This document shows, piece by piece, positions 2,545-43,292 of a stretch of 64,000 nucleotides of DNA. The stretch spans positions 3,756,001-3,820,000 of the forward strand of contig NZ_CP035088.1 in assembly GCF_004786035.1 (NCBI RefSeq), written 5' to 3'. This DNA is from Pseudomonas viciae. Lineage in GTDB: Bacteria; Pseudomonadota; Gammaproteobacteria; Pseudomonadales; Pseudomonadaceae. A program made the position numbers and the translations under genes. The notes beneath the pieces were generated by a model, which saw only the letters and a program-made list of their open reading frames with translations, was not told the DNA's origin and made no database searches. Numbering within the stretch: the first letter of the stretch is position 1; each line of letters opens with the position of its first letter.

Positions 2545-2564
2545 TGTCCCTGCTTCCCATGACA
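2545..2564 (+). promoter_or_regulatory. TGTCCC/ACA regulatory box, copy 1 (NRPS1/cupin promoter)
   Basis: The sequence TGTCCCTGCTTCCCATGACA has TGTC/GACA inverted ends and is followed by GAC. The same 20-bp element occurs at 32626-32645 and 43082-43101. Across the three copies 17 of 23 columns (box plus GAC) are invariant. A possible -10 (CTAATT, about 2585-2590) lies 17-18 nt after ACAGAC. It resembles the syr-syp box bound by SyrF/SalA LuxR-type activators of lipopeptide genes. It lies between the divergent cupin and NRPS1 genes and could serve both. Confidence 0.7.
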
Positions 2565-2599
2565 GACAGTCCCCACCGGATGCTCTAATTTTTTCTCAC

Positions 2600-2620
2600 T
2601 TTGTGAAGGGACTCCAGGCG
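2600..2620 (+). promoter_or_regulatory. Leader segment related to the braA/luxR hairpins
   Basis: GTGAAGGGACTCCA matches GTGGATGGACTCCA of the braA leader at 12 of 14 positions and keeps an ANGGA core (AGGGA), but the flanking arms no longer pair. It lies 37 nt after the box, against 51-52 nt in the other two leaders. It could be a weaker Rsm site or a remnant. Confidence 0.4.
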
Positions 2621-2752
2621 CCCGCGCGCCACCGCCAAGGTCCTTACTCACGGCTATTGATCCGCCGACTGGCAGTCGCCCAGGCCTCCACACATCGCTG
2701 CCTTTCGAACGGAGACAAAACCTCAATTGATTCTGCAAGCAGGTGCTCCGAT

Positions 2753-5700
2753 ATGGATTCGTCGACCGATATGTCGCTCTCGCAAGATTGCGTGTCCCAT
2801 GAGCTGGCCTCAGTCCAGCAGGGCATCTGGCTGGACCAGATCGCGCACCCTGACCTGCCCTACTACAACATCGGCATGTCCCTGGAGATCAGGGGTGAGA
2901 TCAACATCCCATTGTTCGAGAAAGCCATCGAGCTGGTCGCCAACCGTCACGATGCCCTGCGCCTGAGCTTCAGTCATGAGGGTGGCATCGGGCGCCAGCG
3001 AGTCCTGCCCGAGGTCAAGGTGAACCTGCAAGTGGTGGAGTTCTCCGAGGAGCAGGCTGCCGCCGGCCTGGCCATGGACTACCTGCGCGACGCTTTCCGC
3101 CAACCGTTCGAATCGCTGACCGGCCAGCTCTGGGAGGCGCGCATGGTCCGTTGTGGCCCGAACCTCCATTACTGGCTCAACCGCTACCACCACCTGGTCA
3201 CCGACGGCATTGGCGTGGCGCTGATCGGCCACGCCGTGGGCGCGGCCTACAACGGCCTGCTGGCCGGCAATGACGAAGTCGCCCAAGGGCATTCCTACCT
3301 GTCGTTCCTGGAAGATGACCGGGCTTACCTCGCATCGTCCCGCTACGAGCGCGACCGCCAGTTCTGGCAGGAAACCTACGCGCAAATGCCGCCATCGCTC
3401 TTGCAACGCCGCGCTGACTTCAAGACCGGCCAGGCCAATGCGCTGGCGCCCAGCGCCCAGGTGCAGGCGATGCTTCCCCGGGCGCTGTACGACGCCCTGA
3501 CGCAATTCGCCAGCGAGCGCAGCCTGTCGGTCGCCCATGTGCTGATCAGCGTGGTGGCCACCTATTTCTGCCGCACCGTGGGGGTCGATGAAATCGTCAT
3601 CGGCATGCCCGTGCACAACCGCACCACCGCCCGTACCAAAGAAACCGCGGGCATGTTTTCCTCGGTCAGCCCGATCCGCCTGCCTGTCGACTTCGACGCC
3701 TCACTGCTGGACCTGATGCATACCGCCGGTGGACAACTGCGCCGCTGCTACCGCCATCAGCGCTTCCCCATCGCCGAGCTCAACCGCAGCCTGCGCCTGG
3801 CACAGAGCGGACGTCGGCAACTGTTCGACATCTCCTTGTCGTTCGAAAGCCTGGACGGCGACGATCAGTTCGGCGGCACCTCGTCCACCGTCATCACCAT
3901 GGATAACGGCTACGAACAGACGCCCATGGCGATCTTCGTGCGCGACTACCATCCGTTCGAAGACGTCCATCTGGACTTCAACTTCAACACCGCCTATTTC
4001 AGCCTGGAAGAAGCCCGACTCCTGCAACAACGCATGCTCTCGATGCTCGAAGCGGTGCTGGAGCACCATGACACCGCCGTGGGCCATTACCCGCTCATGA
4101 GCCAGGCCGAGCGGCTACGCCTGCAAGTCGAATTCAATGCCACCGCCCGCGACTATCCGCAGGACGTGCTGATCCATCAGTTGTTCGAACAGCAAGCCGA
4201 GCAGCGCCCGGCTGCCTGCGCCGTGCGCGACGACACCGGTCCTTTGCTCAGTTACGGCCAACTCAATCGCCAGGCCAACCGGCTCGCCCATCGCCTGATC
4301 GAACTGGGGGTGAAGCCGGATGACCGGGTGGCCGTGAGCCTCAGACGCGGGCCGGAAATGGTCGTCGCCCTGCTGGGCATACTCAAGGCTGGCGGCGCCT
4401 ACGTGCCTATCGACCCGGACCTGCCGAGCGCCCGCCAGGCGTTCATGCTTGCCGACAGTGCCCCGCGAGCCGTGCTGACCAGCCAGGCACTGCTGGCCCA
4501 GCTGCCGCCGTTGGATGTTCCGCTGCTGGCACTCGATGGCGACGAAGATCACGCGCAACTGGCCACGCAGCCCGAGCATGACCCGGCGCCACACGCCCTG
4601 GGGCTGACACCCCGGCACCTGGCCTACGTGCTCTACACCTCAGGTTCCACCGGCAACCCCAAAGGGGTGATGAATGAACACCTCGGGGTGGTCAACCGCC
4701 TGCTGTGGGCCAGGGACCAATACGGCGTCGATGCCAGCGACCGGGTGCTGCAAAAGACCCCGTTCGGATTTGACGTGTCGGTCTGGGAGTTTTTCCTGCC
4801 GTTGCTGGCCGGCGCCGAGCTGGTCATGGCCCGTCCGGGCGGCCACCAGGAGCCGGATTACCTGGCCCGACTGATGCGCCAGGCCGGCGTCACGCTGCTG
4901 CACTTCGTACCGTCGATGCTCGACCTGTTCCTCGAACACCACGACAGACAGGACTTCCCTGCCCTGCGTCGGGTGCTGTGCAGCGGCGAAGCCCTGCCTC
5001 GCGGCCTGCAACGGCGCTTCGAACAACAACTGGCGGGGGTCGAGCTGCACAATCTCTATGGTCCGACCGAAGCGGCCATCGACGTCACCGCCTGGCAGTG
5101 CCGCCCCAGTGATCCCGGCGAAAGCGTGCCCATCGGCAAGCCGATCGCCAACATCCAGATGCATGTCCTCGACGCCCGGGGCGAACCCCAACCGTTGGGC
5201 GTCGCCGGGGAGCTGCACATCGGCGGCATCGGCGTCGCCCGAGGCTACTTGAACCAAGCGGAACTGAGCGCCGAACGGTTCATCGCCGACCCGTTCAGCA
5301 CTGAACCGAATGCACGCCTGTACAAGACTGGCGACCTTGGCCGGTGGCTGGCCAACGGTGCATTGGAGTACCTGGGGCGCAACGACTTCCAGGTTAAAAT
5401 CCGCGGCCTGCGCATCGAGATCGGCGAAGTCGAAGCGGCCCTGGCCCTGTGCCCCGGCGTTCGCGAAGTGGTGGTCATTGCCCGGGAAGACCATCCTGGG
5501 CAAGCGGACAGCAAACGCCTGGTTGCCTACGTCTGCGGCGAGCCGGTGCCGGCCGAGCAACTGCGTAGCACCCTGCTCAAGCACCTGCCCGAATACATGG
5601 TGCCCAGCGCCTTCGTGCACCTCGATGCCCTGCCCCTCACCGCCAACGGCAAGCTCGACCGCCGCGCCCTGCCTGCGCCGGGCCTGGAATCCCTGGCGAG

Positions 5701-8700
5701 CAAAACCTACGAAGCGCCCCAGGGCGACACTGAACTCGCCATCGCCGAAATCTGGAAACACCTGCTTGGCCTGGATCAGGTCGGCCGTCACGACGGTTTC
5801 CTCGAACTCGGCGGTCACTCGCTGCTGACCGTGCAACTGCAAGCGCGTCTGCACCAGGACCTCGGTGTCGAGATCGACCTGCGCACCCTCTTCGCCCAGA
5901 CCTCGTTGAGTGAACTGGCCCAACGGGTGGAACAGGCCGGCCAGTCCCAGGTCCAGCCGATTGCCGTGGTGTCCCGCGAGCAAGCATTGCCGCTGTCCCT
6001 GGCCCAACAACGCCTGTGGTTCCTCGATCAACTGGACCACGCCGCCAGCGTCGCCTATCACATGCCCGCTGCCCTGCACCTGCGCGGCCAGCTGGATCGC
6101 CACGCCTTGCAACGCGCCCTGGACCGCATCGTCGCCCGCCACGAAAGCCTGCGCACCACCTTCGAACGCCATGACGGCGAGGTCCGCCAGCGCTTCGCCG
6201 CCGCCGACATCGGCTTCGCCTTGCAGGAACACGACCTGCAAGCCCTCGACACCGAGGCCCGGCAGGCGGCCGTCGAGCAATTGACCCAGGCCGAAGCCCG
6301 GGACGCTTTCGATCTGAGCCAGGGACCGCTGATTCGTGGCCGCCTGCTGCGCCTGGACGCCGACGAACATATTCTGCTGGTGACCCAGCACCACATCGTC
6401 TCCGACGGTTGGTCGGTGGCGGTGTTGATCGGTGAATTCAACGCGCTCTATGCCGCCTTCAGCCAGGATCTCGACGATCCACTGCCGCCCCTGGCCCTGC
6501 AATACGCCGACTATGCCGCCTGGCAACAGCAGCACCTGCAAGGTGAACGCCTGCAAGCCCAGGTCGGCTTCTGGAAGGAACACCTCAGCGGCGCCCCGGC
6601 GCTGCTGGAACTGCCCAGCGACCATAACCGCCCGCAAGTGCAAAGCTACCAGGGTGCCGCGCTGGCCCTGCAACTGCCCGCAGCACTCAGCACTCGCCTG
6701 CGCCGCTTCAGCCAGCAACAGGGCCTGACGCCGTTCATGACCCTGCTCGGCGCCTGGTCGATCCTGCTTTCGCGCCTGAGCAACCAACCGCAAGTGGTGG
6801 TCGGCACCCCGGTGGCCAACCGTCCACGCCAGGAAACCGAGGCGCTGATCGGCTTCTTCGTCAACACCCTGGCCCTGCGCATCGACGTCCAGGCCCACAG
6901 CCGTGTCGACCAGTTGCTGGCGCAGATCAAGGCCACCACCCTTGACGCCTACAGCCATCAGGACCTGCCGTTCGAGCAGGTAGTCGAAGTCCTGCAACCG
7001 GAGCGCAGCCTCGGCCACAGCCCGCTGTTCCAGGCCATGCTGGTGCTGGGCAATACCCCGCGCGACCAGGCGTTGGAATTGCCAGGGCTGAGCCTGACCC
7101 CACTGCCCCAGCCCACCGGCACCACCCAATTCGACGTGAGTTTGTCGCTCAACGACGATGGCGAAACCATCAGTGGCCAGTTCGAGTACGCCACCGACCT
7201 GTTCGACGAGAGCACCATCGCCCGTTGGGGCCAGCATTTGCTGCATCTGCTCGACGCGATGCTCGACGATGCCCACCAAGCGCTGGCGACCCTGCCGTTG
7301 CTGGACAACCAGCAACGCCGGCAACTGCTCGGTGGCTTCAATCAGACCCATGCCCCGTTTCCCGAAGGCAGGCTGGTGCATGAGTGGTTCGAACAACAGG
7401 TGCAGGATCGCCCCCGCGCCATCGCTGTCCAGGCTGAAAACAGCCGCCTCAGCTATGGCGAACTCAATGCCCGTGCCAACCGTATCGCTCACCGCTTGAT
7501 CGCCGCCGGCCTGCGCCCGGATGAACGCGTGACGCTGCTGGTGGAACGCAGCCCCGAGATGATCATTGGTATCCTGGCCATCCTCAAGGCCGGCGGCGCC
7601 TATGTGCCGCTGGACCCGAACTATCCGCAGGATCGCCTGCAGCACATGCTCAGCGACAGCTCGCCGCGAGTACTGCTGACCCAAGGCAACCTGGCCGGAC
7701 AACTGCCACCGCTGCCGATCGCGCAGCTGTCGCTGGACGATCCAGCCGCTGGCGATGAACGCAACCCACGGGTCGAAGGCCTGACCTCCCGGCACCTGGC
7801 CTACGTCATGTACACCTCGGGCTCCACCGGTAAGCCGAAGGGGGTGATGCTCGAACACCGTTCGGTGTGCAACCAGATCGGCGCCCTGCAAGAGCGTTAT
7901 GGCCTCAACCCCAAGGACCGCATCCTGCAATTCGCCACCATGACCTTCGACATGTCGGTGGAAGAGATTTTCGGGGCATTACTGTCCGGTGCCACCCTGG
8001 TTCTGCGCAGCGATGCCTGGATTGCCGGGACTGCGGCCTTCGCCGCCCTGTGCGAACAACATGCGATCACCGTCGCCAACCTGCCGACCGTGTTCTGGCA
8101 GCAGGTCAGCCGCGACCTGCATGTAGCGCTGCCCTCCTCGCTGCGTCAGTTCATGATCGGTGGCGAAGCGGTGGGTAAACAGGCCGTGACCCAGTGGTTC
8201 GCCCGGGCCGGTCATCGCCCGGCGCTGTTCAACGCCTACGGCCCGACCGAAGCCACCGTGAACGCCTCGATCCGCCTGATGGAAAGCGATCACGACGACT
8301 TCCGCTCGATCGGCAAACCGGTACGCAACACCCAGCTGCACGTGCTCGATGCCAGCGGCAACCTTGTCCCACTGGGGGTCGCCGGAGAAATTCACATTGG
8401 CGGTGTCGGTGTCGCGCGCGGTTACCTCAATCGCCAGGAGCTGACCGCCGAACGCTTCATTGCCGACCCTTTCAGCACCGACCCGGACGCGCGCCTGTAC
8501 AAGACCGGCGACCTCGGTCGCTGGCTGGCCGATGGCACTCTCCAGTACCTGGGACGCAACGACGATCAGGTGAAGATCCGCGGTTTCCGTGTGGAGCTGG
8601 GCGAGATCGAAGCCATCCTCGCCGGCTGCGCCGGTGTGCGTGAAGCGGTGGTGGTCGCCCAGGAGAGCAAACCGGGTCAATCGGACAGCAAGCGCTTGAT

Positions 8701-11700
8701 CGCCTATCTGTGTGGTGAATCGGTCCCCGTTGAACAGTTGCGCACCGCGTTGCTCGCGGCACTGCCCGAATACATGGTGCCCAGCGCCTTTGTGCACCTC
8801 GAAGCCCTGCCATTGACCCCCAACGGCAAACTCGACCGCCGCGCCCTGCCCGCACCGGGTCAGGAAGCGTTCGCCAGCCGTGCCTACGAGGCACCGCGGG
8901 GCGAGGTCGAGCAGATCGTCGCGACCGTCTGGCAGGATCTGCTGGGCATCGAGAAGGTCGGCCGGCATGACCGCTTCTTCGAACTCGGCGGGCATTCGTT
9001 GCTGGCTGTCAGCCTGATCGACCGTTTGCGCCAGCACGGCCTCAGCGCCACGGTGCGCACCGTGTTCACCGCCCCCAGCGTACGGGAGATGGCCCAAGCC
9101 CTGAGCCGCAGCGAGGAAGTCTTGTTCCTGGCCCCGGCCAACCGGATTCCGGCCGATTGCACGGCGTTGACGCCGGACATGCTGCCCCTGGTGGAACTGA
9201 CCCCGAGCCAGCTCGAACGTATCGTCAGCGCCGTGCCCGGCGGTGCCGCGAACATCCAGGACATCTACCCCCTGGCCCCATTGCAGCAAGGCATTCTGTT
9301 CCATCATTTGCTCGGGCATGAAGGCGACGCCTATCTGGTGCGCTCGATGATCGAGTTCGACGACCGCCAGCGCCTCGATGCCTTTGTCACGGCCCTGCAA
9401 CAGGTCATTGACCGCCACGACATCCTGCGCAGCGCCGTGCATTGGGTCGGCCAGCCGCAAGCGGTGCAGGTGGTGCAACGTCGGGCCGTGTTGCCGGTCC
9501 AGCCCATCACCCTGGCGGCCGATGAGGATCCGCGCGCGCAACTGGAGCGTTTGAGCGATCCACGACACCTGCGCCTGGATTTGCAACAGGCACCGCTGAT
9601 GCGTGCCTGCATCGCCCAGGACCCGCATTCCCAACGCTGGTGGCTGGCATTGCTGGACCACCACATGATCAGCGACCACGTGTCCCTGGGCATCGTGCTC
9701 GAGGAAATCCAGACCCTGATGCAGGGTCAGGGGGCCGACCTGCCGACACCCATGCCGTATCGGGAGTTCGTCGCGCAGATTCTCGCCACCCCGCCCCAGG
9801 CCCACGAAGCCTATTTCGCTGGGCGCCTGGCCAGTGTCGATGAGCCGACGGCCCCATTCGGTGTGCTGGATGTCCAGGGCGACGGTGCCCAGGTGGTGGA
9901 AACCAGTGTGCGTCTCGACCCGGCCCTGAGCCTGCGGATCCGCGCGCAATCGCGTACGGCCGGGGTGACGCCGGCGGTACTGTTTCATCTGGCCTGGGCC
10001 CAGGTGCTCGGGCGGTGCACGGGGCGTGACGACGTAGTGTTCGGCACCGTGGTCACCGGACGCCTGCAAGGTTCACTGGGTGCCGACCGGGCCCTTGGCG
10101 TGTTCATCAACACCCTACCAGTACGGGTGCAATTGGCCGGGCTCAGTGTCAGCACGCTGGTGGACGAAACCTATCGCGACCTCAGCGAACTGCTCGCCCA
10201 CGAACAGGCCTCCCTGGCCCTGGCCCAACGCTGCAGCGGGGTTACCGCGGGCCTGCCGCTGTTCACCACCCTGCTCAACTACCGCCATCAGACCGACGGC
10301 GGCTCGTTGGCCAACACAGATCAGGTCCTGGCCTGGGACGGTGTGCGCTTCCTGAGCAATGAAGCCCGTACCAACTATCCGATCGAAGTGGCTGTGGCGG
10401 ATGAAGGCGACGACTTCTCCCTGACCGCCCAAGCCATCACTGGCATCGACCCGCAACGCATCGCCGCCTACCTCGGCCAAGCCGTGGCCGCCCTGGTGGA
10501 AGCCCTTGAACAGGCCCCCGAACGCCTCGCCAGCGATCTGGAAGTGCTGCCCGAAACCGAGCGGCAATTGCTGCTGGCGGACTTCAACCGCACCGCCAGC
10601 GACTTCGGGCCTGCCCAGCCAATCCACACCCTGTTCGAAACCCAGGTCCAGGCCAATCCCGAGGCCGTGGCCCTGGTTTGCGAGAACCAGCAACTGAGCT
10701 ACCGCCAGCTCAACCGCCGCGCCAACCACCTGGCCCGACAGTTGCTCGAACTCGGTATCCAACCCGATCAACGCGTGGCGATCTGTGCCGAGCGCAGCCT
10801 GGACATGATCGTCGGCCTGCTGGGGGTGCTCAAGGCCGGCGCCGCCTACGTGCCGATCGACCCGGCCCACCCTGCCGAGCGCATGGCGTTCATGGTGCAG
10901 GACAGCCAGCCACGGGCGTTGTTGAGCCAAGCGGCCCTCAACTTGCCGGCAGGCGAGCTGCCGCTGTTGTTGCTCGACACGGTTGATTCGTTGCAGGCTG
11001 CGAGCAATCCGGCCTTTGATGCCAATCCGCAAGTGCCAGGCCTGACAGCCGAGCACCTGGCCTATGTGATCTACACCTCCGGCTCCACCGGCCAATCCAA
11101 GGGCGTGATGGTCGAGCACCGTTCGGTGTTCAACTTCTGGCAGGTGCTGACCCGCAGCACCCACCGGCACTGCCCGACACCGGCCACCGTGGCGCTGAAT
11201 GCCGGGTTCTTCTTCGACATGTCGATCAAGGGCATCTCGCAGCTATTCTCCGGCCACCGTTTGGTGATCATCCCGCAACTGATCCGCGCCAGCGGCCACG
11301 AGCTGCTGGATTTCCTCGAACAGCATCAGGTGCATGCCTTCGATTCCACGCCGTCGCAGCTCGACACTCTGCTCGCCGCCGGCCTGCTGGAGCGCCAGAG
11401 CTATCAGCCGGTGAGCGTGCTGCTCGGTGGCGAGGCGATCAACGCCGCGACCTGGGAGAAACTGCGCAACTGCCCGAACATTCGTTTCTACAACATGTAC
11501 GGCCCGACCGAATGCACGGTAGACGCCACCATCGACCTGATCCGCGACCTCGGCGAACGGCCGAGCATTGGCCGGCCGATCGCCAACGTCCAGGTGCACG
11601 TGCTCGACGCCCGGGGGCAACCGACGCCGCTGGGCGTGGCCGGCGAGCTGCACATCGGCGGGGCCGGTGTGGCCCGCGGTTACCTGAACCGTCCGGAGCT

Positions 11701-32465: not shown

Positions 32466-32470
32466 AGGCG

Positions 32471-32509
32471 CCTGGGGTGTCCGGTGAGCAATGCACCGGG
32501 TACCCCAGG
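32471..32509 (+). terminator. Strong hairpin just after NRPS2
   Basis: CCTGGGGT pairs with ACCCCAGG and, inside it, CCGGTG pairs with CACCGG around a 7-nt loop. The hairpin starts 6 nt after the NRPS2 stop. No T-tract follows, so it may act as a transcript 3' end stabiliser or a Rho-assisted stop rather than a classic intrinsic terminator. Confidence 0.6.
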
Positions 32510-32524
32510 ATTCGACACATACTC

Positions 32525-32596
32525 CGTGGGAACGTGCGTGCTCGCGATAGCGGTGGTTCCGTGCCGCTGTCATCGCGAGCAAGCTCGCTCCCGCAG
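32525..32596. repeat. REP pair between NRPS2 and braA
   Basis: GTGGGAACGTGCGTGCTCGCGA and the opposed TCGCGAGCAAGCTCGCTCCC form a divergent REP pair typical of fluorescent pseudomonads. The left arm is slightly degenerate. It separates the NRPS1/2 unit from the braABC unit. Confidence 0.8.
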
Positions 32597-32625
32597 GGTC
32601 AACAGCCCTGATCCGCACGCCAGGA

Positions 32626-32645
32626 TGTCCCCGTTTTCCGCTACA
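32626..32645 (+). promoter_or_regulatory. TGTCCC/ACA regulatory box, copy 2 (braA promoter)
   Basis: TGTCCCCGTTTTCCGCTACA followed by GAC. A possible -10 (TTAAAT) lies 19 nt after ACAGAC, so the box would overlap or abut the -35 region, as expected for an activator site. The following ~90 bp also align with the luxR upstream region. Confidence 0.75.
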
Positions 32646-32696
32646 GACGCTGCCTACCTGCAACCGCTTAAATACGCCCCTCAAGCTGAATCGTTT

Positions 32697-32715
32697 CTGT
32701 GGATGGACTCCACAG
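32697..32715 (+). promoter_or_regulatory. Leader hairpin with ANGGA loop, braA
   Basis: CTGTGGA-TGGAC-TCCACAG is a perfect 7-bp stem with loop TGGAC. The closing A and loop give A-N-GGA-N-U, the RsmA/CsrA consensus arrangement. The luxR leader has the same hairpin with both arms changed (GGA/TCC to GAA/TTC). The braA ribosome-binding site (AGAGGGAG) contains a second ANGGA. Confidence 0.6.
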
Positions 32716-32780
32716 GCGATGCCTGGTCGCCCGTCGATCAGACCTGTCACCCACCGCACGATCACTCTAGAGGGAGCCTT

Positions 32781-34043: not shown

Positions 34044-34150
34044 TCACGGATTGATCGGCGTTTGACTCTGCGCTGCCAATGGCCCGGCCTGAAGGCATCA
34101 CTCTTTTCATTCGTTTCATCGGGCCAGCGGATCGGCCCACGGAGAACCTC

Positions 34151-37100
34151 ATGACTCAGACCATGCCCGCTTCGAGCGCAGAGCAGGTGCTTTATCCCCT
34201 CACCGCTCCGCAACTGGATATCTGGCTGGACCAGGTGCTGCACGGTGACAGTCCGTTGTACAACATCGGCGGCTATGCACGCATCAACGGCGCGGTCGAT
34301 GCATCACTGATGCAAACGGCCATCGATCAAGTAGTCAACCGCCACGACGCGCTGCGGATCCAGCTGGTACCCGGCTCAAGCGAACATCCTCTGCCACGGC
34401 AACGGTTCCTGGGGGCTGTCAGCGTTCCGATGACGGTACATGACGTATCGGGCCATGACGATCCGCAGGCCAGCGCACTGGCGTTGCTGCAGGAAAACCT
34501 GCAGACCCCGTTTTCCTTTGACCGCGGACTGCTGTTGCGCGCCGACCTGATCAAGATTCGGGAAAACCTCTACTACTTTTTCGTCAACTGCCATCACCTG
34601 ATCGTCGATGGCTGGTCCTTCGCCATGATCGGCCGTGCTGTCAGCCAGGCCTATACCGCCCTGCACGAGCAGACGCACAACCCAGTCACGGCGCCGAGCT
34701 ATCAAGCATTTATCGAGCAGCAAGTCACCCACAAGGATTCGGCCGCGTTCCAGCGCCAACGCCAATACTGGTTGGACAAGTACCGTACCCTGCCCGAGCC
34801 CCTGCTCGCCCCCCGCTATCAGAGTCGCTTCGGCCAGCACCTGGCACCCAGTCAGAACCATGCCTGGCGCCTGCCACGGGCGCTTTACAATCGCCTCGCC
34901 GAACAGGCGAAAGACTCGGGCCAGGGGACTGTCTTCCACGTCATGCTGGCCGCGCTGTACAGCTACTTTGCACGCATCGAGCAGCGCGATGAGCTCGTGA
35001 TCGGCCTGCCCATCCTCAACCGCGCCAATGCCGCGCACAAGGCCACGCTCGGTCTGTTCGTCGGCATGAGCCCGGTACGCCTGGACCTGGGCACCGACCT
35101 GAGTTTTGCCGAGCTGGTCGGCAAGATTGCCCTGACGCTCAAGCAGGACTATCGCTATCAACGCTTTCCGTTGAGTGAACTGAACCGTGAACTCGGGCTG
35201 CAGAACCTCGGCCGGCGACAGTTGTTCGACGTGGTGGTGTCCTACGAACAGGACCAGGACACCTGGTACGGGCCGGCACTGGCGCAACCGGTCAAGCTCA
35301 GCAATGGCTACGAACAGTTGCCACTGGCGATGCACATTCGCGAGGCAGCGCCAGAGGACGATGTGTGGATGCATTTCATCTACAACGAAGCCTATTTCGA
35401 AGCCGCGCAGATCGAGACACTGCAACAGCGCTTCATGCACATCGTGCAGGTCGTGGCGGATAACTTCGACGTACCGGTCAACACCCTCGATCTGATGCCG
35501 GCGCATGAACGCCAGGTGCTGCATGAATGCAATTGCACTGACGTCGACTACCCCAGGGATGTGCTGCTCCATCAATTGATCGAGGCCCAGGTCACGGCTC
35601 GCCCCGAAGCCCTCGCAGTACGGTTCGCGGAGCAAGCGCTGACCTACGACCAACTGAACCGACAGGCCAACCGGCTGGCCCACGCCCTGCTGGAAACCGG
35701 CCTTGGCCCGGACGCCCGAGTCGCCATCTGCGTGGAGCGCAGCCTGGAGATGGTGGTAGGCCTGCTGGGCATTCTCAAAGCGGGCGCCGCCTACGTGCCC
35801 CTGGATCCGGGTTATCCGGCCGACCGCTTGAGCCACATGCTGAGCGACAGTGCACCCAGCGCGCTGATAACCACCCGAGGGTTATTGGCGAGCCTGCCCG
35901 CCGCGACGATGCCGGTACTGTGCCTGGATACCGACCAGGAACGCTTGTCCCGGCAGCCGGAGCACAACCCGGACGCCGCTGCGCTCGGGCTGACGCCCCA
36001 ACATTTGGCCTACGTGATCTACACCTCCGGCTCCACGGGCCTGCCCAAAGGCGTCATGAACCAACATGACGGGGTGGTGAATCGACTGCTCTGGGCCCGC
36101 GATGCCTATGGCGTCGATGAGCACAGCCGCGCGCTGCAGAAGACTCCGTTCAGTTTCGACGTGTCCGTCTGGGAATTTTTCCTGCCGTTGCTCAGTGGCG
36201 CGCAACTGGTCGTCGCTGCTCCCGACGGGCACAAGGATCCAGGCTATTTGATGGACATCATGGCGAGCGCCGGCATCACGCTGTTGCATTTCGTGCCGTC
36301 GATGTTGCAAATCTTCCTCGATCAGGTCGAACCACAGCGTTTGCCGGCGCTCGAGCAGGTACTGTGCAGTGGCGAAGCCTTGCCCCATGCCTTGCAGAAG
36401 CGTTTTTTTGAACGCTTGCCCAACGTGCAGCTGCACAACCTCTATGGCCCCACCGAAGCAGCCATTGATGTCACGGCCTGGCATTGCCGGGCCGACATGC
36501 ACGAAGGCATCGTGCCGATCGGCCAGCCGATCGCGAACATTCAAATGCATGTCCTGGATGCGAACCTGCAACTGCTGCCACCTGGTGTGGCTGGCGAGCT
36601 TCATATTGGTGGGCTGGGTGTCGCCCGAGGTTACCTGAACCGTCCCGAGCTGACGGCCGAACGCTTCATCCAGGACCCATTCCGGGATGACCCGCAGGCC
36701 CGCCTGTACAAGACCGGCGACCTGGGGCGTTGGCTGCCCGATGGCAGCCTCGAATACCTGGGGCGCAATGATTTCCAGGTGAAGATCCGCGGCCTGCGCA
36801 TTGAACTCGGCGAGATCGAAGCGCACCTGCTCGCCTGCGAGGGCGTCAAGGACGTGGTGGTGATCGCTCGCCAGGAAACCGAAGGTGATGCGTACTTGTG
36901 CGCCTATCTGGTGAGCGAACCCGGATGCAAGCTGTCACCGCAAGCGCTGCAAGATGATTTGCGCCAGCAGGTACCCGACTACATGGTGCCCAGGCACCTG
37001 ATCGAGCTTGAACAATTGCCGTTGAATGTAAATGGCAAGCTGGACCGCAAGGCCTTGCCCGAGCCTGCCGACACCCTGGGCACCGATACCACAGCGCCGC

Positions 37101-40100
37101 GCACGGCATTGGAGCAGGCGCTGGCCGACCTCTGGCAGGAAAACCTCAAACGCACGACGCTGGGCATCCACGACAACTATTTCATGCTTGGCGGCGATTC
37201 CTTGAAGGTCATTCACTTGCAGATCCATGCACGTGAACAAGGCATAGCGCTGACCCTGGCGCAAATTTACCAGCACCCCACTATCGCGCAACTGGCCCAG
37301 TCGCTACAGACGCAAGACCTGTCATCCACCCCGCTGCTGCCTTTGAAGCACGTGGCACCTTTTGCCCAGGTGCCGGCAGAGATCCGCGTGACCAGCGCGG
37401 GTCTGTACGATGATGTGTTTGCGGCTTCGCAGCTGCAAGTCGGGATGATCTATCACTCGATGATGCATCCGGAGTCGGCGATCTATCACGACATCTTCCG
37501 CTATCGCCTGCGTCTGCGTTGGGATGCAACGGCTTGGGATCGTGCCTGCGAGACATTGATCCGGCGCCACCCGGCCCTGCGCATGTCATTCGACATCGGC
37601 CACGCCGAAGTGCCCATGGCCCGGGTGCATTCGACGGTCGAATCGCCGGTGCAAGTCATCGATGTCGTTGCACTGAGCCCGGACGCACGTGCCCAGGTCA
37701 TTGCCACCTACGTGGAGGAACGCAAGGGTTACCGCGAAGACTGGCAGCGGGCGCCGCTGTATCAGTTCTGCGTGTTCGTCGCGGAGGCTGAAATCGACCT
37801 GGTCTTGAGCTTCCATCATGCGATCCTCGATGGCTGGAGCGTTGCCACCTTGATGCGCGACTTGATCACGCTCTACACCTCGGCGCCTGGAACCGACGCC
37901 CTGCCAGCCCTGACCACCACGCCGGCCGACTTCATTGCCCAGGAGCAGGCCGCCATGGCAAGCGATGTTCACCGCCGGTTCTGGGGCGAATACCTGCGCG
38001 ATGCGCCTGCCGCCGCCATGACCAGCTGGATCCACGCGGTCGCTCCGGATCCGACGCCGCATCGCTCGGCCTATCGGGAATTGCCTGCAGCGGAGCTGGC
38101 CCGCCTCGAAGCGTTCTGTCGGGCCCACGACCTGCCGTTGCGGGCGGTCTTGCTGACGGCCCACGGTTTCGCCCAAGCCATCATGTCCAATCAAAAGGAA
38201 GTGCTGTGCGGCGTCATCAGCCATGGGCGGCCAGAGTTCGAGGATGCCGCCTCGGTCCTGGGGCTGTTCCTCAACACCCTGCCGGTGCGCTTCAACACCC
38301 AGGGCCAGAATTGGCTTGAAGTCATCCGGGCCTTGATTGCCCAGGAACAACAGGTGTTCGCTCACCGGCGCTATCCGTTTGCTCTGATTCATCGCGAAAC
38401 CGATGTCGCTCTGAACGTGGTGTTCAATTACGTCGATTTTTATGTGCTCAAAGACATGCTGGCCCAGGGCCAAGAAGTCCTCACCGAGTGGGAAACCACC
38501 GAAGCCAGCAACTATGACTTGCTGACCACGCTGGGCCGCCACCCTGGCAACGGTTCGCTGATGCTGAAAATGGACTACTGCACAACGCGTGTCGCCACGA
38601 GCCAGGTCGAGGCCTACGCCGAATACTTGCTGCGCACACTGGAACTGATGATCGCCGCCCCCGATGCCAAGCCCAGCATCCCGGCCTGGCTGCCGCGCCT
38701 CGAACGACCCACGCCACAGGCAGCCGCGACAGTTGCCCCTGACAATCTGTCGGCCCTGCTACTGGACAGCTTCGCCCGCCACGAGCAGCAGACCGCCGTC
38801 AGTTTTGGCCAGGCCCGCCTGTCTTATCGCCAGTTGGGAGATACCTGCGCACAACTGGCGAGTTGGCTGCACCAGCAGGGTATCGGCCAGGGCGACCGGG
38901 TCGCGATCATGATGCCGCGCTCGCCTGACCTGATCATTGCCTTGCTCGGCGTCCTACAGGCTGGTGCCGCGTATGTACCGATTGACCTGAGTTATCCGAA
39001 TGAGCGCATCCAGCTGATTCTCGAAGACTCGCAACCGGGACTGGTGCTCTTCACCGATGCATCTGCGCATCTGGCGATGACCCTGGCCGGCCAGGCCGAC
39101 ACCCGGCACTGGGACAGTGTGGTCGCCGGCTTCGACACCAACCTGGCGCGCAGCCACGCACGGGTTGCCTCCATTGCCACCGACATCGTGGCTGACGATA
39201 ACGCCTACTTACTCTATACATCCGGCTCGACGGGCCGTCCCAAGGGCGTGGCGATGCCGCACCGGGCGTTGACCAATATGATCCTCTGGCAGAACCGCCA
39301 GCCGCCGACCGGACCACTGAAGACGCTGCAATACTCGCCGATCTCGTTCGACGTTTCGTTCCAGGAGATTCTCTCGACGCTGTCTAGCGGCGAAGAACTG
39401 GTGATGATTGATGAGGGGCTGCGCTATGACTTCATCCGGCTGTTGAAATTCATCTGCGCGCAACAGGTCAATCGCCTGTTCCTGCCCTACGTCGCCTTCC
39501 AGGGGTTGGCCGAAGTCGCCATGCAGCTCGGCATCCGACCGGTATCGCTGCGCCAGATCAACGTGGCCGGCGAACAATTGAAAATCACCGCCGAAATCCG
39601 TGAACTGATCGATGGCATCGGCGATTGCCGGGTCGAAAACCACTATGGCCCGACCGAGGCCCATGTGGTCACCCGCCTGACGCTTGAAGGCGCCACGGCG
39701 AGCTGGCCGAGCATGCCGTCGATTGGCACGCCCATCGACGGGGTGCGCATGCATGTCCTGGATGGGGCGGGCAACCCCTGCCCGGTTGGAGTCATGGGCG
39801 ACCTGTTCATCGAAGGAGAATGCCTGGCCAACGGCTACTGGAACCGACCTGACCTGACCGACGAACGTTTTATCTATCGCCAGTTGGCAGGCCAGACCCG
39901 GCGCTTGTATGAAACCGGCGACATCGGTTTCTACCTGCCCGGAGGCGATCTGGTCTACCAAGGCCGCAGCGACGCACAAGTCAAGATCCGTGGCTATCGC
40001 GTCGAGCTGGGCGAGATCGAAGTGGCCATGCTCGGCTCCGCCCGGTTCAGGGCCGACATCCAGCAGGTGGCGGTCATCGACAAGCCCGCGCCCGATGGCA

Positions 40101-41437
40101 GTCGGTATCTGGTGGGCTTCGTCCAGCCCCTGCCGGGCCGCGAGCCGGACCTGGACCAACTCAAGGCTGAAATGCGCCTGGCGCTGCCCGACTACATGGT
40201 GCCGAACACCCTGGTCAGCATCGCCAAGCTACCCCTCGGGCCTACCGGCAAGATCGACCGGCTGCGGTTGCAGAAGGTAGAAGTCCACAGCACGCTGCAG
40301 CGTCCCTTCATCGCACCGAGAAATGCCATGGAGGACCTGCTGCAAGCCTACTGGCAAGAAACCCTGGGCCTGGAAGACATCAGCGTTTACGACAACTTCT
40401 TCGAACTGGGGGGCAACTCGCTCAAGGCCGTGCAACTGGTTGCCATGCTCGCCAGGCATCAGGGCCTGGAGCCGTCGCTGTCGGACTTCATCCAGGCCCC
40501 GACCATCGCCGAATTCGCCCAGGTGCTGCAACACACCGAAACCGGGCACCCTGAGACCGGTGCGCTGGTGGACTTCAAGAACGCCACGCGCAAGCCACCG
40601 TTGTTCCTGGTGCACCCCATCGGTGGACATGTGCTGTGTTATGCGGCACTGGCACGGGTGCTCAAGGACCAGGTCCACCTGTACGCACTGCAAGCACCAG
40701 GTACATGGGATGCCCGTGCCCCTTTGCAATCGGTACAGGCCCAGGCGCTGTACTACGCGGATGCCATTGAACAGGTCGCGCCTGAAGGGCCACTGAACAT
40801 TGGCGGCTGGTCCTATGGCGGCGTCGTGGCGTATGAGCTGGCGAGCGAGTTGCAGCGGCGCGGGCGGCGTCTGCATAACGTGTTTCTGCTCGACACCATC
40901 GTGCGCGTCAGACAGGGCGAGGTGCAGATAGAACGCACCGAGTTCATGAATTGGTTCATGTGGGAACTGCTCAGCGGCGATGGGCAAAAGGAATACGCCT
41001 ACCACGCCCTGGACTTCACCTCCATGGGCGACTCCCAGGCCTTCGCGGCGATCAGGCAGCACGGCATCGACCAGGGCATTTTCGACCAGACCATCACCCT
41101 GGCGACACTGGATCAGCTGTTCCGGGTATTTCACGCAAACTGGCAAGGTTTGCTGGACTATCGCTTCCCGCCCCTGGACTTGCCGATCACGTTGTTCGCG
41201 GCGGATGTCGAACTGCCCGATGTGCTGCAAGCGCCCCATGAACTGGTGGGTACGGCCTTTCGCGACCCCTACCGTGGCTGGCGCTCGATTGCGCCCCAGG
41301 TGCAGCGAGTCGCCGTAGAGGGCGACCATTTGACCATGATGCGCGAACCTCATATCGAGCGAGTGGGCCAATTCATCGAGTCACGAATGGACGCGGCCCG
41401 GGCCAGGAATGCCGGAGCCATGCCGGCATTCGCATAA
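34151..41437 (+). CDS. braB: Dimodular NRPS BraB (Ser-Pro, brabantamide)
   Basis: The 2428-residue synthetase is C1-A1-T1-C2-A2-T2-TE. C1 (HHLIVDGWS) is a starter domain for acylation by a hydroxy fatty acid. A1 reads DVWHLSLID (Ser). A2 reads DVQFNAHVV, which is close to proline codes (DVQ.IAHVV) but has Asn at position 299. T1 has LGGDSL and T2 has LGGNSL; the TE has GGWSYGG. This is the published architecture of BraB, which makes an acyl-Ser-Pro intermediate that is cyclised before oxidative rearrangement. The ATG at 34151 follows GGAG with 6 nt spacing. It lies in one transcription direction with braA and braC. Confidence 0.9.
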   Translation: MTQTMPASSAEQVLYPLTAPQLDIWLDQVLHGDSPLYNIGGYARINGAVDASLMQTAIDQVVNRHDALRIQLVPGSSEHPLPRQRFLGAVSVPMTVHDVSGHDDPQASALALLQENLQTPFSFDRGLLLRADLIKIRENLYYFFVNCHHLIVDGWSFAMIGRAVSQAYTALHEQTHNPVTAPSYQAFIEQQVTHKDSAAFQRQRQYWLDKYRTLPEPLLAPRYQSRFGQHLAPSQNHAWRLPRALYNRLAEQAKDSGQGTVFHVMLAALYSYFARIEQRDELVIGLPILNRANAAHKATLGLFVGMSPVRLDLGTDLSFAELVGKIALTLKQDYRYQRFPLSELNRELGLQNLGRRQLFDVVVSYEQDQDTWYGPALAQPVKLSNGYEQLPLAMHIREAAPEDDVWMHFIYNEAYFEAAQIETLQQRFMHIVQVVADNFDVPVNTLDLMPAHERQVLHECNCTDVDYPRDVLLHQLIEAQVTARPEALAVRFAEQALTYDQLNRQANRLAHALLETGLGPDARVAICVERSLEMVVGLLGILKAGAAYVPLDPGYPADRLSHMLSDSAPSALITTRGLLASLPAATMPVLCLDTDQERLSRQPEHNPDAAALGLTPQHLAYVIYTSGSTGLPKGVMNQHDGVVNRLLWARDAYGVDEHSRALQKTPFSFDVSVWEFFLPLLSGAQLVVAAPDGHKDPGYLMDIMASAGITLLHFVPSMLQIFLDQVEPQRLPALEQVLCSGEALPHALQKRFFERLPNVQLHNLYGPTEAAIDVTAWHCRADMHEGIVPIGQPIANIQMHVLDANLQLLPPGVAGELHIGGLGVARGYLNRPELTAERFIQDPFRDDPQARLYKTGDLGRWLPDGSLEYLGRNDFQVKIRGLRIELGEIEAHLLACEGVKDVVVIARQETEGDAYLCAYLVSEPGCKLSPQALQDDLRQQVPDYMVPRHLIELEQLPLNVNGKLDRKALPEPADTLGTDTTAPRTALEQALADLWQENLKRTTLGIHDNYFMLGGDSLKVIHLQIHAREQGIALTLAQIYQHPTIAQLAQSLQTQDLSSTPLLPLKHVAPFAQVPAEIRVTSAGLYDDVFAASQLQVGMIYHSMMHPESAIYHDIFRYRLRLRWDATAWDRACETLIRRHPALRMSFDIGHAEVPMARVHSTVESPVQVIDVVALSPDARAQVIATYVEERKGYREDWQRAPLYQFCVFVAEAEIDLVLSFHHAILDGWSVATLMRDLITLYTSAPGTDALPALTTTPADFIAQEQAAMASDVHRRFWGEYLRDAPAAAMTSWIHAVAPDPTPHRSAYRELPAAELARLEAFCRAHDLPLRAVLLTAHGFAQAIMSNQKEVLCGVISHGRPEFEDAASVLGLFLNTLPVRFNTQGQNWLEVIRALIAQEQQVFAHRRYPFALIHRETDVALNVVFNYVDFYVLKDMLAQGQEVLTEWETTEASNYDLLTTLGRHPGNGSLMLKMDYCTTRVATSQVEAYAEYLLRTLELMIAAPDAKPSIPAWLPRLERPTPQAAATVAPDNLSALLLDSFARHEQQTAVSFGQARLSYRQLGDTCAQLASWLHQQGIGQGDRVAIMMPRSPDLIIALLGVLQAGAAYVPIDLSYPNERIQLILEDSQPGLVLFTDASAHLAMTLAGQADTRHWDSVVAGFDTNLARSHARVASIATDIVADDNAYLLYTSGSTGRPKGVAMPHRALTNMILWQNRQPPTGPLKTLQYSPISFDVSFQEILSTLSSGEELVMIDEGLRYDFIRLLKFICAQQVNRLFLPYVAFQGLAEVAMQLGIRPVSLRQINVAGEQLKITAEIRELIDGIGDCRVENHYGPTEAHVVTRLTLEGATASWPSMPSIGTPIDGVRMHVLDGAGNPCPVGVMGDLFIEGECLANGYWNRPDLTDERFIYRQLAGQTRRLYETGDIGFYLPGGDLVYQGRSDAQVKIRGYRVELGEIEVAMLGSARFRADIQQVAVIDKPAPDGSRYLVGFVQPLPGREPDLDQLKAEMRLALPDYMVPNTLVSIAKLPLGPTGKIDRLRLQKVEVHSTLQRPFIAPRNAMEDLLQAYWQETLGLEDISVYDNFFELGGNSLKAVQLVAMLARHQGLEPSLSDFIQAPTIAEFAQVLQHTETGHPETGALVDFKNATRKPPLFLVHPIGGHVLCYAALARVLKDQVHLYALQAPGTWDARAPLQSVQAQALYYADAIEQVAPEGPLNIGGWSYGGVVAYELASELQRRGRRLHNVFLLDTIVRVRQGEVQIERTEFMNWFMWELLSGDGQKEYAYHALDFTSMGDSQAFAAIRQHGIDQGIFDQTITLATLDQLFRVFHANWQGLLDYRFPPLDLPITLFAADVELPDVLQAPHELVGTAFRDPYRGWRSIAPQVQRVAVEGDHLTMMREPHIERVGQFIESRMDAARARNAGAMPAFA

Positions 41438-41524
41438 CCGTTACCGACTGGTCACGGGGCAGGATTGGCTGCCCCGCCAGACTCATATGCCCGGTCGTTC
41501 CGGGCCAGAAACAGGTGAAACAAC

Positions 41525-42685
41525 ATGACAGAACCCAGAAAAGCCATTGTGGCTGGCGCCGGGATCGGCGGCCTGACCGCCGCCATCGCGCTGCAGCGAG
41601 CAGGCTGGCAGGTCAAGGTCTTCGAAGCGGCCCAGACGCTGCGTACCGGCGGCACCGGCTTGTCGATCATGGCCAATGCCATGGCGGCGCTGCATTCGAT
41701 CGACGCCCATGTTCCGGTGGAGCAGGCAGGCCAGGTGATCCGCCAGTTTTTCTTCAAGAAACAAAACGGCGATCCCATCACCAGCATGCCTATCCACGAG
41801 ATCGGCGAACAGTTGGGCTACCCCAACGTGAATATCCAGCGTCCCCTGCTGCTGCGTGCCCTGGCGCAGCAACTCACGCCCGACACCCTGACGACCGGAT
41901 TGCGTTGCGTGGGTTATATCCATCGCCCGGATGGCGTGGTGGTGCAGTTCGAAGATGGCAGCAGCCAGGAGGCTGACCTGCTGATCGGCGCCGATGGCCT
42001 GAACTCGGTGATCCGCCAGCAGATGCTCGGTGAAACGCCCACCCGCCCATCGGGTTATGTCGCCTGGCTGGCGGTGACGCCCTTCAGCCATCCAGTCATG
42101 ACCGACGGCTATGTCGCGCACTATTGGGGGCGTGGCAAGCGTTTCGGGCTCTGCGATGTGGGGGACGGCCAGGCGTATTGGTGGGGAACCTGCAACCACG
42201 CGAACGCGGCGGATGCAGCCTTGAACATCAGCAAGCAGGAAGTGCTCAGTGCCTACAGCGGCTGGGCGCCGGAAGTCATGGCGGCCATCGAGGCGACACC
42301 CGAGAGTGTCATATTGAAAATGCACGCCCGGGATCGCCATCCCGTGGAGCAATTCTGTGACGGCCATGTGGTGCTGTTGGGTGATGCGGCTCATCCCATG
42401 CTGCCCAGCCTCGGCCAGGGCGCGGCGCAGGCGATCGAGGATGCGGTGGTGCTGGGCAATCGCCTGGCGCACACCCAGGACCTGCGCACCGCACTGGCAG
42501 ACTACCAGGCGTATCGCCACCCCCGGGCCAATGGGATCGTCAATGCCGCTCGCTTCATGAGCGGCATCGAACAGGCCGAGTCGACACTCGCCTGCTGGCT
42601 TCGGGAATGGTATTTCCGCCTGACCCCGCAAAGCAGCCTGCGTAAAAAGAACATCGACATCCTGTCGTTCAAGCCTTGCGCATAA
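41525..42685 (+). CDS. braC: FAD monooxygenase BraC (Baeyer-Villiger-like tailoring)
   Basis: The 386-residue group A flavoprotein monooxygenase has the GAGIGG Rossmann motif near residue 12, the DG motif LIGADGLNSVIR and the GD motif GHVVLLGDAAHPMLP, all in the expected order and at family length. In the brabantamide pathway the homologous enzyme catalyses the unusual oxidative rearrangement that makes the bicyclic carbamate. The gene starts 87 bp after braB with AGGTG about 9 nt upstream. Without its neighbours it could only be called a PHBH-type hydroxylase. Confidence 0.88.
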   Translation: MTEPRKAIVAGAGIGGLTAAIALQRAGWQVKVFEAAQTLRTGGTGLSIMANAMAALHSIDAHVPVEQAGQVIRQFFFKKQNGDPITSMPIHEIGEQLGYPNVNIQRPLLLRALAQQLTPDTLTTGLRCVGYIHRPDGVVVQFEDGSSQEADLLIGADGLNSVIRQQMLGETPTRPSGYVAWLAVTPFSHPVMTDGYVAHYWGRGKRFGLCDVGDGQAYWWGTCNHANAADAALNISKQEVLSAYSGWAPEVMAAIEATPESVILKMHARDRHPVEQFCDGHVVLLGDAAHPMLPSLGQGAAQAIEDAVVLGNRLAHTQDLRTALADYQAYRHPRANGIVNAARFMSGIEQAESTLACWLREWYFRLTPQSSLRKKNIDILSFKPCA

Positions 42686-43077
42686 GCCGTCAAGGGCAAC
42701 CGGTCTGGCCATGACGCGCCAGCGTGTCTTGGCCGGGCGAACTCCGGATGAGTCAATGACGAAAAGCGACTCCTACACAGACAGAAAACGACACTTTCAT
42801 GGAGGAGAATCGAGAAATCAGAATAATTCGCCATAATCGGAATCTGAATTTCTGACATTTCTACCAGAGAATTCCCACACGCAAGATCGTCAAAAAACAG
42901 ATAACGAATGCCCTCAAAGGAGCACAAACAGAACCCAAGCCACTGATTTAAATAAATATTTTACAAAAAACAGCTTAAGGCCCGTCCTTCGTCGCAATCA
43001 CTGCCCGAAGAAAAGCCTTTCTCCAAATGTGTACTTTTTGCCAGGAGCCTAACGAAACGGCGCCACCCTACTGTCCA
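42686..43077. other. AT-rich intergenic region between braC and luxR
   Basis: About 390 bp with no convincing gene. From roughly 42770 to 43010 it is clearly richer in A and T than its surroundings (for example TTTAAATAAATATTTTACAAAAAAC near 42950), as is the start of luxR. A weak inverted repeat (CTGGC/GCCAG) shortly after the braC stop could end the bra transcript. Confidence 0.6.
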
Positions 43078-43081
43078 GGAA

Positions 43082-43101
43082 TGTCCCTGTTTTCCCTTAC
43101 A
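43082..43101 (+). promoter_or_regulatory. TGTCCC/ACA regulatory box, copy 3 (luxR promoter)
   Basis: TGTCCCTGTTTTCCCTTACA followed by GAC. A possible -10 (TTAATA) is 19 nt after ACAGAC. Its presence in front of the regulator gene suggests autoregulation. Confidence 0.75.
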
Positions 43102-43152
43102 GACTTTTCCTACGCTGGAACGCTTAATAGCCCTACCCGCTGAACCGTTGTT

Positions 43153-43168: not shown

Positions 43169-43292
43169 GGTGATATTTGACCCCAGGTATCAAATCCAGA
43201 AGAGGCTTCAGCATTTTGAGAAGCGGTCGGATTTTCTTCCGTCAACGATCACTGAGATGCAGAGCTTTTTCGCAGTATGCAGGATAAGCATA

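What the first reader, a model, noticed from the sequence alone, without database searches (positions are those of the whole stretch)
2545..43101. One 20-bp box in front of NRPS1, braA and luxR links an unknown lipopeptide to brabantamide
TGTCCC-N11-ACA, always followed by GAC, occurs at 2545-2564, 32626-32645 and 43082-43101, once per transcription unit. Seventeen of 23 columns are invariant, and a plausible -10 lies 17-19 nt after ACAGAC each time. I found no copy in front of the other genes of the window. It resembles the syr-syp box of SyrF/SalA regulators, but the internal spacer and sequence differ. The natural reading is that the LuxR protein at 43293 controls both pathways and itself.
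Basis: partly seen in the sequence, partly recalled or inferred. Interest (0 to 1): 0.82.

Follow-up and report, generated by a model that had tools for sequence, protein, structure and literature searches.

The report
Shared switch site for antifungal lipopeptides
A 20-letter DNA switch stands before the genes for three antimicrobial lipopeptides and before their controller gene; it is the known syr-syp box of Pseudomonas, here also reaching the brabantamide genes and the controller itself.

Summary
The three boxes are real and far from chance. In the 6.7-Mb genome the exact 23-mer (TGTCCC-N11-ACAGAC) occurs five times, all within 94 kb. A matrix adds three near copies and nothing else in 164 kb. 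The eight sites front an exporter, a peptin NRPS, syrP-syrD, syrB1, an Asp-hydroxylase (candidate only), NRPS1, braA and luxR. NRPS1 is no unknown pathway but a mycin-type NRPS of an LPQ island. The LuxR protein falls in the SyrF clade (99/97). Orthologous promoters of P. congelans and KUIN-1 carry boxes of the same length and layout, so this is the syr-syp box. Beyond the papers I could read: (i) the box precedes the LuxR gene itself in 21 of 21 relatives and in 23 of 23 examined single-box genomes, although one paper reports none at syrF; (ii) braA shares its promoter and leader with luxR (z 10.8), including a GGA-loop hairpin that may be an RsmA/E site; (iii) single-box genomes carry a second, different operator at an NRPS gene. 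Whether ThaF/BraD or RfiA occupies the luxR box is unresolved.

The parts
2545..2567 (+). syr-syp-type box of the mycin NRPS1 promoter (identical 23-mer to the peptin NRPS box at G000:C1:3705014)
   Evidence: boxes of the same class in 18 other distinct rows
2585..2590 (+). putative -10 (CTAATT), 17 nt after ACAGAC
   Evidence: sequence
2603..18877 (+). NRPS1, first mycin-type synthetase; the GTG at 2603 is only the longest ORF, the true start is probably further in (several orthologue alignments begin near residue 35-42)
18795..32465 (+). NRPS2 with terminal thioesterase, second mycin-type synthetase
32626..32648 (+). syr-syp-type box of the brabantamide operon (braA) promoter
   Evidence: 11 distinct braA boxes including this one
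32667..32672 (+). putative -10 (CTTAAA), 18 nt after ACAGAC
   Evidence: sequence
32697..32715 (+). leader hairpin CTGTGGA-TGGAC-TCCACAG with GGA in the loop, candidate RsmA/RsmE site
32781..34043 (+). braA, glycosyltransferase
   Evidence: Glyco_transf_28, EryCIII-like_C
34079..41437 (+). braB, two-module NRPS with thioesterase
   Evidence: 2 Condensation, 2 AMP-binding, Thioesterase
41525..42685 (+). braC, FAD-dependent monooxygenase
   Evidence: FAD_binding_3
43082..43104 (+). syr-syp-type box of the luxR (syrF/thaF/braD orthologue) promoter
   Evidence: 21 of 21 relatives
43123..43128 (+). putative -10 (CTTAAT), 18 nt after ACAGAC
   Evidence: sequence
43151..43168 (+). leader element TTTGTGAA-TGGA-TTCACA, homologous to the braA hairpin; also an exact TGTGA-N6-TCACA dyad
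   Evidence: not the minimum-energy fold
43276..43292 (+). ribosome-binding region TATGCAGGATAAGCATA: AGGA in the loop of a 5-bp hairpin just before the start codon
43293..44120 (+). LuxR-type activator, SyrF/NunF/ThaF(BraD) orthologue; start taken at 43293 because upstream spacing in relatives changes by non-multiples of three
44208..45632 (+). pleC-type outer membrane efflux protein; a homologue follows luxR in 21 of 21 relatives
44..66 (-). candidate eighth box (TGTACCGGATTCCCGTGACAGAC, one mismatch) facing an Asp/Asn hydroxylase gene outside the window (G000:C1:3755317-3755928 -)

Best explanation
The 20-bp element is the syr-syp box, the operator of the SyrF-type LuxR activators, repeated across an LPQ-type lipopeptide island (exporter, last of three peptin NRPS genes, syrP-syrD, syrB1-B2, mycin NRPS1, braA, luxR; possibly an Asp-hydroxylase). 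A dimer of the SyrF orthologue encoded at 43293 binds it next to -35 and recruits RNA polymerase, so mycin, peptin and brabantamide genes are switched on together. The box in front of luxR is the point where the regulator is switched on, by itself and/or by the clade II regulator RfiA encoded at the far end of the island. Shown here: sequence, position, genome specificity, conservation, orthology of protein and promoters. Inferred from relatives: that SyrF-type protein binds. Inferred only: direction (activation), autoregulation, and an additional RsmA/E brake on the braA and luxR leaders.
For: 5 of 5 exact genome hits lie in one 94-kb stretch; a matrix (trained on exact matches, these five included) finds 8 sites and no other score of 10 or more in 164 kb. 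In G000 plus 21 relatives, 102 of 106 distinct exact boxes precede genes of these classes. Boxes sit at the syrB1, syrP/syrD, NRPS and exporter promoters of P. congelans and KUIN-1; for P. [quoted passage not shown] The LuxR protein is in the SyrF clade, 99/97, with a near-identical recognition helix. 4 of 5 brabantamide genes are differentially expressed in pcoR and rfiA mutants of P. [quoted passage not shown]
Against: No binding or expression data for this strain. Wang et al. 2006, which defined the syr-syp box, is not held, so its consensus is recalled, not read. [quoted passage not shown] In P. protegens the protein that binds the luxR1 promoter is LuxR2; LuxR1 binding to its own promoter is not mentioned in the section I read (PMC13187841). 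[quoted passage not shown]
Confidence: 0.78

Rival explanations
1. The box is primarily the operator of the clade II regulator (RfiA/SalA/LuxR2 type); RfiA activates luxR, braA and the NRPS genes, and the SyrF orthologue acts elsewhere or only helps.
For: In P. protegens LuxR2 binds the luxR1 promoter while LuxR1 binds the NRPS promoter (PMC13187841, section 28 read). In single-box genomes the box is on the luxR1 side while the NRPS has a different operator. A second, RfiA-like LuxR gene occurs in 38 of 39 box-bearing genomes searched (assigned by best match, only 12 such rows were put in a tree). 4 of 5 brabantamide genes are differentially expressed in pcoR/rfiA mutants of P. corrugata (PMC5890197, passages).
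Against: SyrF is the reported ligand of the syr-syp box, and PMC4783005 (passages) concludes that the SalA site is dissimilar from it. One box-bearing genome has no RfiA-like match (G072; 9% contamination), and one genome with RfiA and the NRPS operator shows no box (G165). SyrF/ThaF has nearly the same recognition helix as the single-box LuxR1 proteins and the NRPS-type operator is absent from G000, so ThaF would have no site.
Confidence: 0.25
2. Both regulators share the box: RfiA starts luxR transcription and ThaF then takes over at all boxes, including its own (feed-forward plus positive feedback). This is a detailed form of the main reading, not exclusive of it.
For: The two clades have related recognition helices (NSSIETYLKRA vs VNTVESYLKRA). 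SalA is said to bind the syrF promoter in P. syringae (PMC4783005, passages), and the promoter of the syrF orthologue carries the box in P. congelans and KUIN-1.
Against: No competition or footprint data; purely inferred.
Confidence: 0.4
3. Sequence similarity reflects recent duplication of promoters with no shared control.
For: The braA and luxR leaders, and the NRPS1 and peptin NRPS leaders, are homologous beyond the box (z 10.8 and 6.3).
Against: The box is kept across promoters whose other sequence is unrelated (of the 28 pairs only these two exceed z 3), across 43 genomes with zero control hits, and at a near-fixed distance from -10.
Confidence: 0.04
4. The GGA hairpin in the luxR and braA leaders is a DNA dyad for the CRP homologue Vfr (TGTGA-N6-TCACA) and not an Rsm site.
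For: The luxR version of the window is an exact TGTGA-N6-TCACA dyad; in this leader the GGA hairpin is not the minimum-energy fold.
Against: GGA is kept in 17 of 18 rows at each of its three columns while the rest of the loop varies, and the braA version has one more loop base and TGTGG/CCACA arms, which fits an RNA loop better than a CRP site. The CRP/Vfr consensus is recalled, not from a call.
Confidence: 0.25

Closest known systems
syr-syp box of Pseudomonas syringae pv. syringae (Wang et al. 2006, not held; described in passages of PMC4783005, PMC3597554, PMC10928948)
   Same: 20 bp, around -35, partial dyad, in front of syr/syp biosynthesis and export genes; same sequence at orthologous promoters of P. 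congelans and KUIN-1
   Different: Here it also precedes braA and the syrF orthologue; in the luxR and braA classes the right half is reduced to ACA followed by GAC
SyrF / NunF / CorF / ThaF (BraD) LuxR-type activators
   Same: Clade with the P. congelans and KUIN-1 orthologues at 99/97, HTH without autoinducer domain, pleC downstream, island context
   Different: No biochemical work on this protein; its own promoter carries the box
LuxR2 -> luxR1 -> ofaABC cascade with RsmA/E control of both luxR genes (P. protegens Pf-5, PMC13187841)
   Same: Clade II and clade III LuxR pair; GGA motif in the luxR leader; hierarchical activation
   Different: In the orfamide system the biosynthetic operon has no GGA element; here the braA leader carries a relative of the luxR leader with its GGA hairpin
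PcoR/RfiA regulon of P. corrugata (PMC5890197, passages)
   Same: Includes corpeptin genes and 4 of 5 brabantamide genes; pcoR-, pcoI- and rfiA-like genes are in this island too
   Different: No operator was named for it in the passages I saw

Membership tests
syr-syp box | 20-bp conserved element near -35 of syr/syp biosynthesis and export genes | tested here: met
   Same length and similar -10 spacing at orthologous promoters of G017/G018 and of G000; start sites not mapped
syr-syp box | dyad symmetry | tested here: inconclusive
   Near-perfect in TGTCCCGGAATGCGGGGACA (L058/L077) and visible in the syrP/syrD class; weak in the luxR and braA classes
syr-syp box | bound by SyrF dimers | not testable with these tools
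   Reported in PMC10928948 and PMC4783005 (passages) for P. syringae; not tested for this protein
syr-syp box | published consensus | not tested
   Original paper not held; consensus only recalled
SyrF-type LuxR regulator (fourth LuxR subfamily) | C-terminal GerE HTH, no autoinducer or receiver domain | tested here: met
SyrF-type LuxR regulator (fourth LuxR subfamily) | clade with orthologues of P. congelans and KUIN-1, next to pleC | tested here: met
   (99/97; pleC in 21 of 21); characterised SyrF itself was not in the tree
LPQ island (mycin, brabantamide, peptin plus quorum sensing genes) | mycin NRPS, bra genes, peptin NRPSs, pcoI/pcoR/rfiA together | tested here: met
RsmA/RsmE binding site | GGA in a hairpin loop of the 5' leader | tested here: inconclusive
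   Conserved in braA and SyrF-type luxR leaders but not the minimum-energy fold of the luxR leader
RsmA/RsmE binding site | binding by RsmA/E | not testable with these tools
   Three CsrA-family genes exist in the genome

The most novel reading that the evidence does not exclude
Brabantamide was wired into the lipopeptide network by a copy of the regulator's own promoter and leader, operator and RNA element together, so the operon is switched on by the SyrF/RfiA box and held back by RsmA/E at the same time as its activator. In the genus the box is first of all the control site of the LuxR1/SyrF regulator gene; single-box strains use a distinct second operator at the NRPS, whereas island strains have put the regulator-type box in front of the biosynthetic and export units.
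Probability: 0.35. Interest if true: 0.62.

Novelty: new member of a known kind. Interest (0 to 1): 0.45.

Why it matters
It gives brabantamide a concrete operator and ties it to mycin and peptin control. In the review I read in passages, the related island of P. nunensis In5 was given only an unproven lux box for a NupR1-NupR2 complex. It also yields a low-background matrix that marks SyrF/LuxR1-type regulator genes, and a simple test of who activates whom.

Tried and rejected
Rfam scan of window 32500-33000 (braA leader) found no RNA family (one chance miRNA match below its cut-off); the luxR leader was not scanned. Deciding between ThaF and RfiA as binder from co-occurrence failed: an RfiA-like gene is in 38 of 39 box genomes searched, with one exception each way, and most of those 38 were assigned by best match, not by tree. 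Recognition helices do not separate single-box LuxR1 from SyrF. A first hairpin search with a fixed hexaloop missed braA, whose loop differs by one base; it was replaced by loops of 4-7. Under that wider rule other leaders also show GGA hairpins of at least 5 bp (peptin NRPS 13 of 18, orf359 4 of 9, pseA 1 of 2, other luxR 2 of 11, syrB1 2 of 17, NRPS1 0 of 19, single-box luxR1 0 of 23, against a background of 8.2%), so the hairpin alone is weak evidence; its conserved position and paired changes carry the argument. MAFFT put the loop gap in the stem, so pairs were counted with the gap placed in the loop by hand, which favours the structure. The NRPS1 leader has at most a remnant of the hairpin. 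The ORF reading of luxR from 43158 was rejected because box-to-start spacing in relatives shifts by non-multiples of three. Rows dropped: one search parsed 29 of 30 loci (L124 lost to my position filter); one search merged boxes with identical first 120 bp, so its counts are distinct rows, not genomes; one search used 18 distinct hairpin rows and left out L030, L031 and the non-SyrF luxR rows, which lack the element, and two braA rows without it (L051, L056); the window's own luxR row is represented there by an identical core (L026). The 149-genome draw shares some genomes with the 21 (equal coordinates, e.g. G100 and G009), so the two sets are not independent; the second-operator pattern was likewise drawn from loci that its search then found again. 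The Markov controls were only four, and their best scores were not printed.
Full report
Observation. The 23-mers at 2545, 32626 and 43082 exist as described, with 17 of 23 invariant columns and a -10-like hexamer 17-19 nt downstream. In the 6,704,877-bp genome the exact pattern occurs five times, at C1:3705014(-), 3750780(+) and the three window sites, all within 94 kb. With one mismatch allowed it occurs 21 times in all against 14 for the reversed pattern; 13 of the 21 are outside the island. I tiled the 164 kb of C1:3656001-3820000 and scanned it with a class-balanced matrix trained on exact matches. Eight sites score 24.8 or more and no other reaches 10, while each of four Markov controls gave 1-3 hits of 10 or more. 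The three extra sites, not in the training set, are 3669100(-), 3750705(-) and 3756044(-); the last is window 44-66(-).

What lies behind the boxes. They face an OEP/RND exporter operon; a 10,311-aa NRPS, the last of three large NRPS genes on that strand (N-terminal parts scanned); a TauD-family gene (SyrP-like) followed by a cyclic-peptide ABC exporter (SyrD-like); an adenylation protein followed by a chlorinating enzyme (SyrB1/SyrB2-like); an Asp/Asn hydroxylase; NRPS1; braA; and luxR. NRPS1 and NRPS2 were scanned in two pieces each. They give 5 and 4 adenylation stretches, so about nine modules, and a terminal thioesterase (a domain cut at the join could be counted twice). braB is a two-module NRPS with thioesterase. 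At the far end are an autoinducer-binding LuxR, an autoinducer synthase and a second HTH-only LuxR, as pcoR, pcoI and rfiA. This is the LPQ layout described in the review PMC10928948 (passages read), with thaF/braD after the mycin and brabantamide genes and then pleC. The 'unknown lipopeptide' is therefore a mycin-family product by genetics; its structure was not worked out here.

Conservation. A genome-contig search gave 21 LuxR loci. All 21 have the 20-mer TGTCCC-N11-ACA, starting 142-249 nt upstream of the matched start, and 20 of 21 continue with GAC. In these 21 genomes the exact 23-mer occurs 107 times against 12 control matches (my sums of the table). After fetching flanks there were 106 distinct boxes including G000. 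By tblastn 102 precede relatives of NRPS1 (19), braA (11), luxR (26), peptin NRPS (18), the SyrP-like gene (9), syrB1 (17) and the exporter (2). Four were unassigned; two of those lie beside a boxed luxR gene. In a draw of 149 Pseudomonas genomes, which overlaps the 21, a tightened pattern has 94 matches in 43 genomes, 30 of which have one copy, and no control match at all (counts mine). Of 30 loci returned, 29 were parsed. All 23 single-copy boxes among them sit upstream of a LuxR1/SyrF-family gene; the other 7 single-copy genomes were not examined at that step.

Family. The window's LuxR falls with the orthologues of P. congelans and KUIN-1 and 16 others in one clade (99/97), apart from RfiA (100/100), and pleC follows in 21 of 21 (that P. 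congelans and KUIN-1 belong to the syringae group is recalled). The tree warned of some long branches, none of them this row. Its recognition helix (KNSSIETYLKRAAAKLG) is essentially that of the SyrF-type and single-box LuxR1 proteins; RfiA types read KVNTVESYLKRAAIK. The published account is that SyrF binds the syr-syp box (PMC10928948, PMC4783005, passages) and that NunF is needed for NRPS transcription (PMC5727362, passages). [quoted passage not shown] In P. congelans and KUIN-1 I find TGTCCCGGTATCC(C/A)GTGACAGAC starting 203 nt upstream of the matched start of the syrF orthologue, and boxes upstream of a further luxR gene that I take to be syrG-like by position. I did not examine B728a itself.

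Second operator. In 14 of 15 fetched single-box loci the box lies between luxR1 and an NRPS gene pointing the other way (in L154 the NRPS match is 2.6 kb off); the fifteenth (L156) has an RfiA-like gene upstream and no NRPS match. I call these strains mono-producers by inference only. On the NRPS side a different 23-mer, TGTCCGGGTTTNNNGNGNCATNC, recurs. A relaxed form has 26 matches in 149 genomes, no control match and none in G000. Of these, 22 precede an NRPS gene, 20 with luxR1 on the opposite side, and 4 have neither. In P. protegens LuxR2 binds the luxR1 promoter and LuxR1 the NRPS promoter (PMC13187841, section 28). This suggests, but does not prove, a two-tier code; co-occurrence does not settle which protein owns which operator.

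Leaders. Excluding the box, the 110 nt after it are homologous between braA and luxR (z 10.8, 0 of 300 shuffles as high) and between NRPS1 and peptin NRPS (z 6.3, 0 of 300); no other of the 28 pairs among the eight exceeds z 3. The braA and luxR leaders share a small stem with GGA in the loop at about the same distance from the box. By the script, a stem of at least 6 bp with a GGA loop is found in 11 of 16 SyrF-type luxR rows and a stem of at least 5 bp in 9 of 11 braA rows, against 3.5% and 8.2% of random windows; three of the nine braA rows have their best-scoring stem elsewhere, but the element itself can be read in them. Over 18 distinct rows three inner pairs change on both sides and GGA is kept in 17 of 18 at each column. 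The fold of the braA leader shows the hairpin, the luxR leader prefers another fold, and neither z-score is strong (-1.17, -1.58). A second GGA lies in a short hairpin at the luxR ribosome-binding site; the form TATGCAGGAT(A/C)AGCAT is read in 15 of 19 SyrF-type rows including G000 (counted by eye), and the fold of that piece is not better than shuffles (z -0.16). RsmA/E binding to GGA in luxR leaders is shown in P. protegens, where the biosynthetic operon lacks it (PMC13187841, passages), and predicted elsewhere (PMC4353343, PMC5635164, passages). Three CsrA-family genes are present here. An alternative is a CRP/Vfr dyad.

Mechanism and limits. Most likely the SyrF orthologue binds the box beside -35 and activates all boxed units, with RfiA feeding luxR; Rsm would set the threshold. 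Binding, direction and autoregulation are not shown. I found no paper that places the box at braA or lists it as a SyrF-family self-promoter element in the listings of searches and in the passages read; the library lacks most subscription papers.

Noticed in passing
L151-L165; e.g. L153:10341-10363 (+): A second, distinct operator TGTCCGGGTTTNNNGNGNCATNC in front of NRPS genes of single-box strains, opposite the luxR1 box; absent from the window's genome.
   Followed up: partly
L030 and L031, box starting 203 nt upstream of luxR: The syr-syp-type box is present upstream of the syrF orthologue in P. congelans and KUIN-1, at odds with a published statement for syrF.
   Followed up: partly
L058 and L077: Two boxes close together, one a near-perfect dyad (TGTCCCGGAATGCGGGGACA), beside a luxR gene that may be syrG.
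   Followed up: no
window 50553-56324 (+) and 56479-60915 (-): Large protein with pectate-lyase-like, Ig-like and RTX repeats next to an OEP, HlyD and ABC transporter set, and a weak alginate-export match at 63166-63969; resembles a secreted alginate epimerase system (recalled).
   Followed up: partly
window 45925-48683 (-): Two adjacent HemN-type genes with overlapping ends; the second (47310-48683) has only the C-terminal HemN domain match and no radical-SAM match.
   Followed up: no
window 49540-50502 (+): IS110-family transposase to the right of the lipopeptide genes.
   Followed up: no
G165:C7 / L182: A cluster with the NRPS-side operator and an RfiA-like gene elsewhere in the genome but no luxR1-side box within the 3-kb locus.
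   Followed up: partly
L040: One exact box in KUIN-1 (TGTCCCAGAAATCAGTGACAGAC) not assigned to any lipopeptide gene.
   Followed up: no
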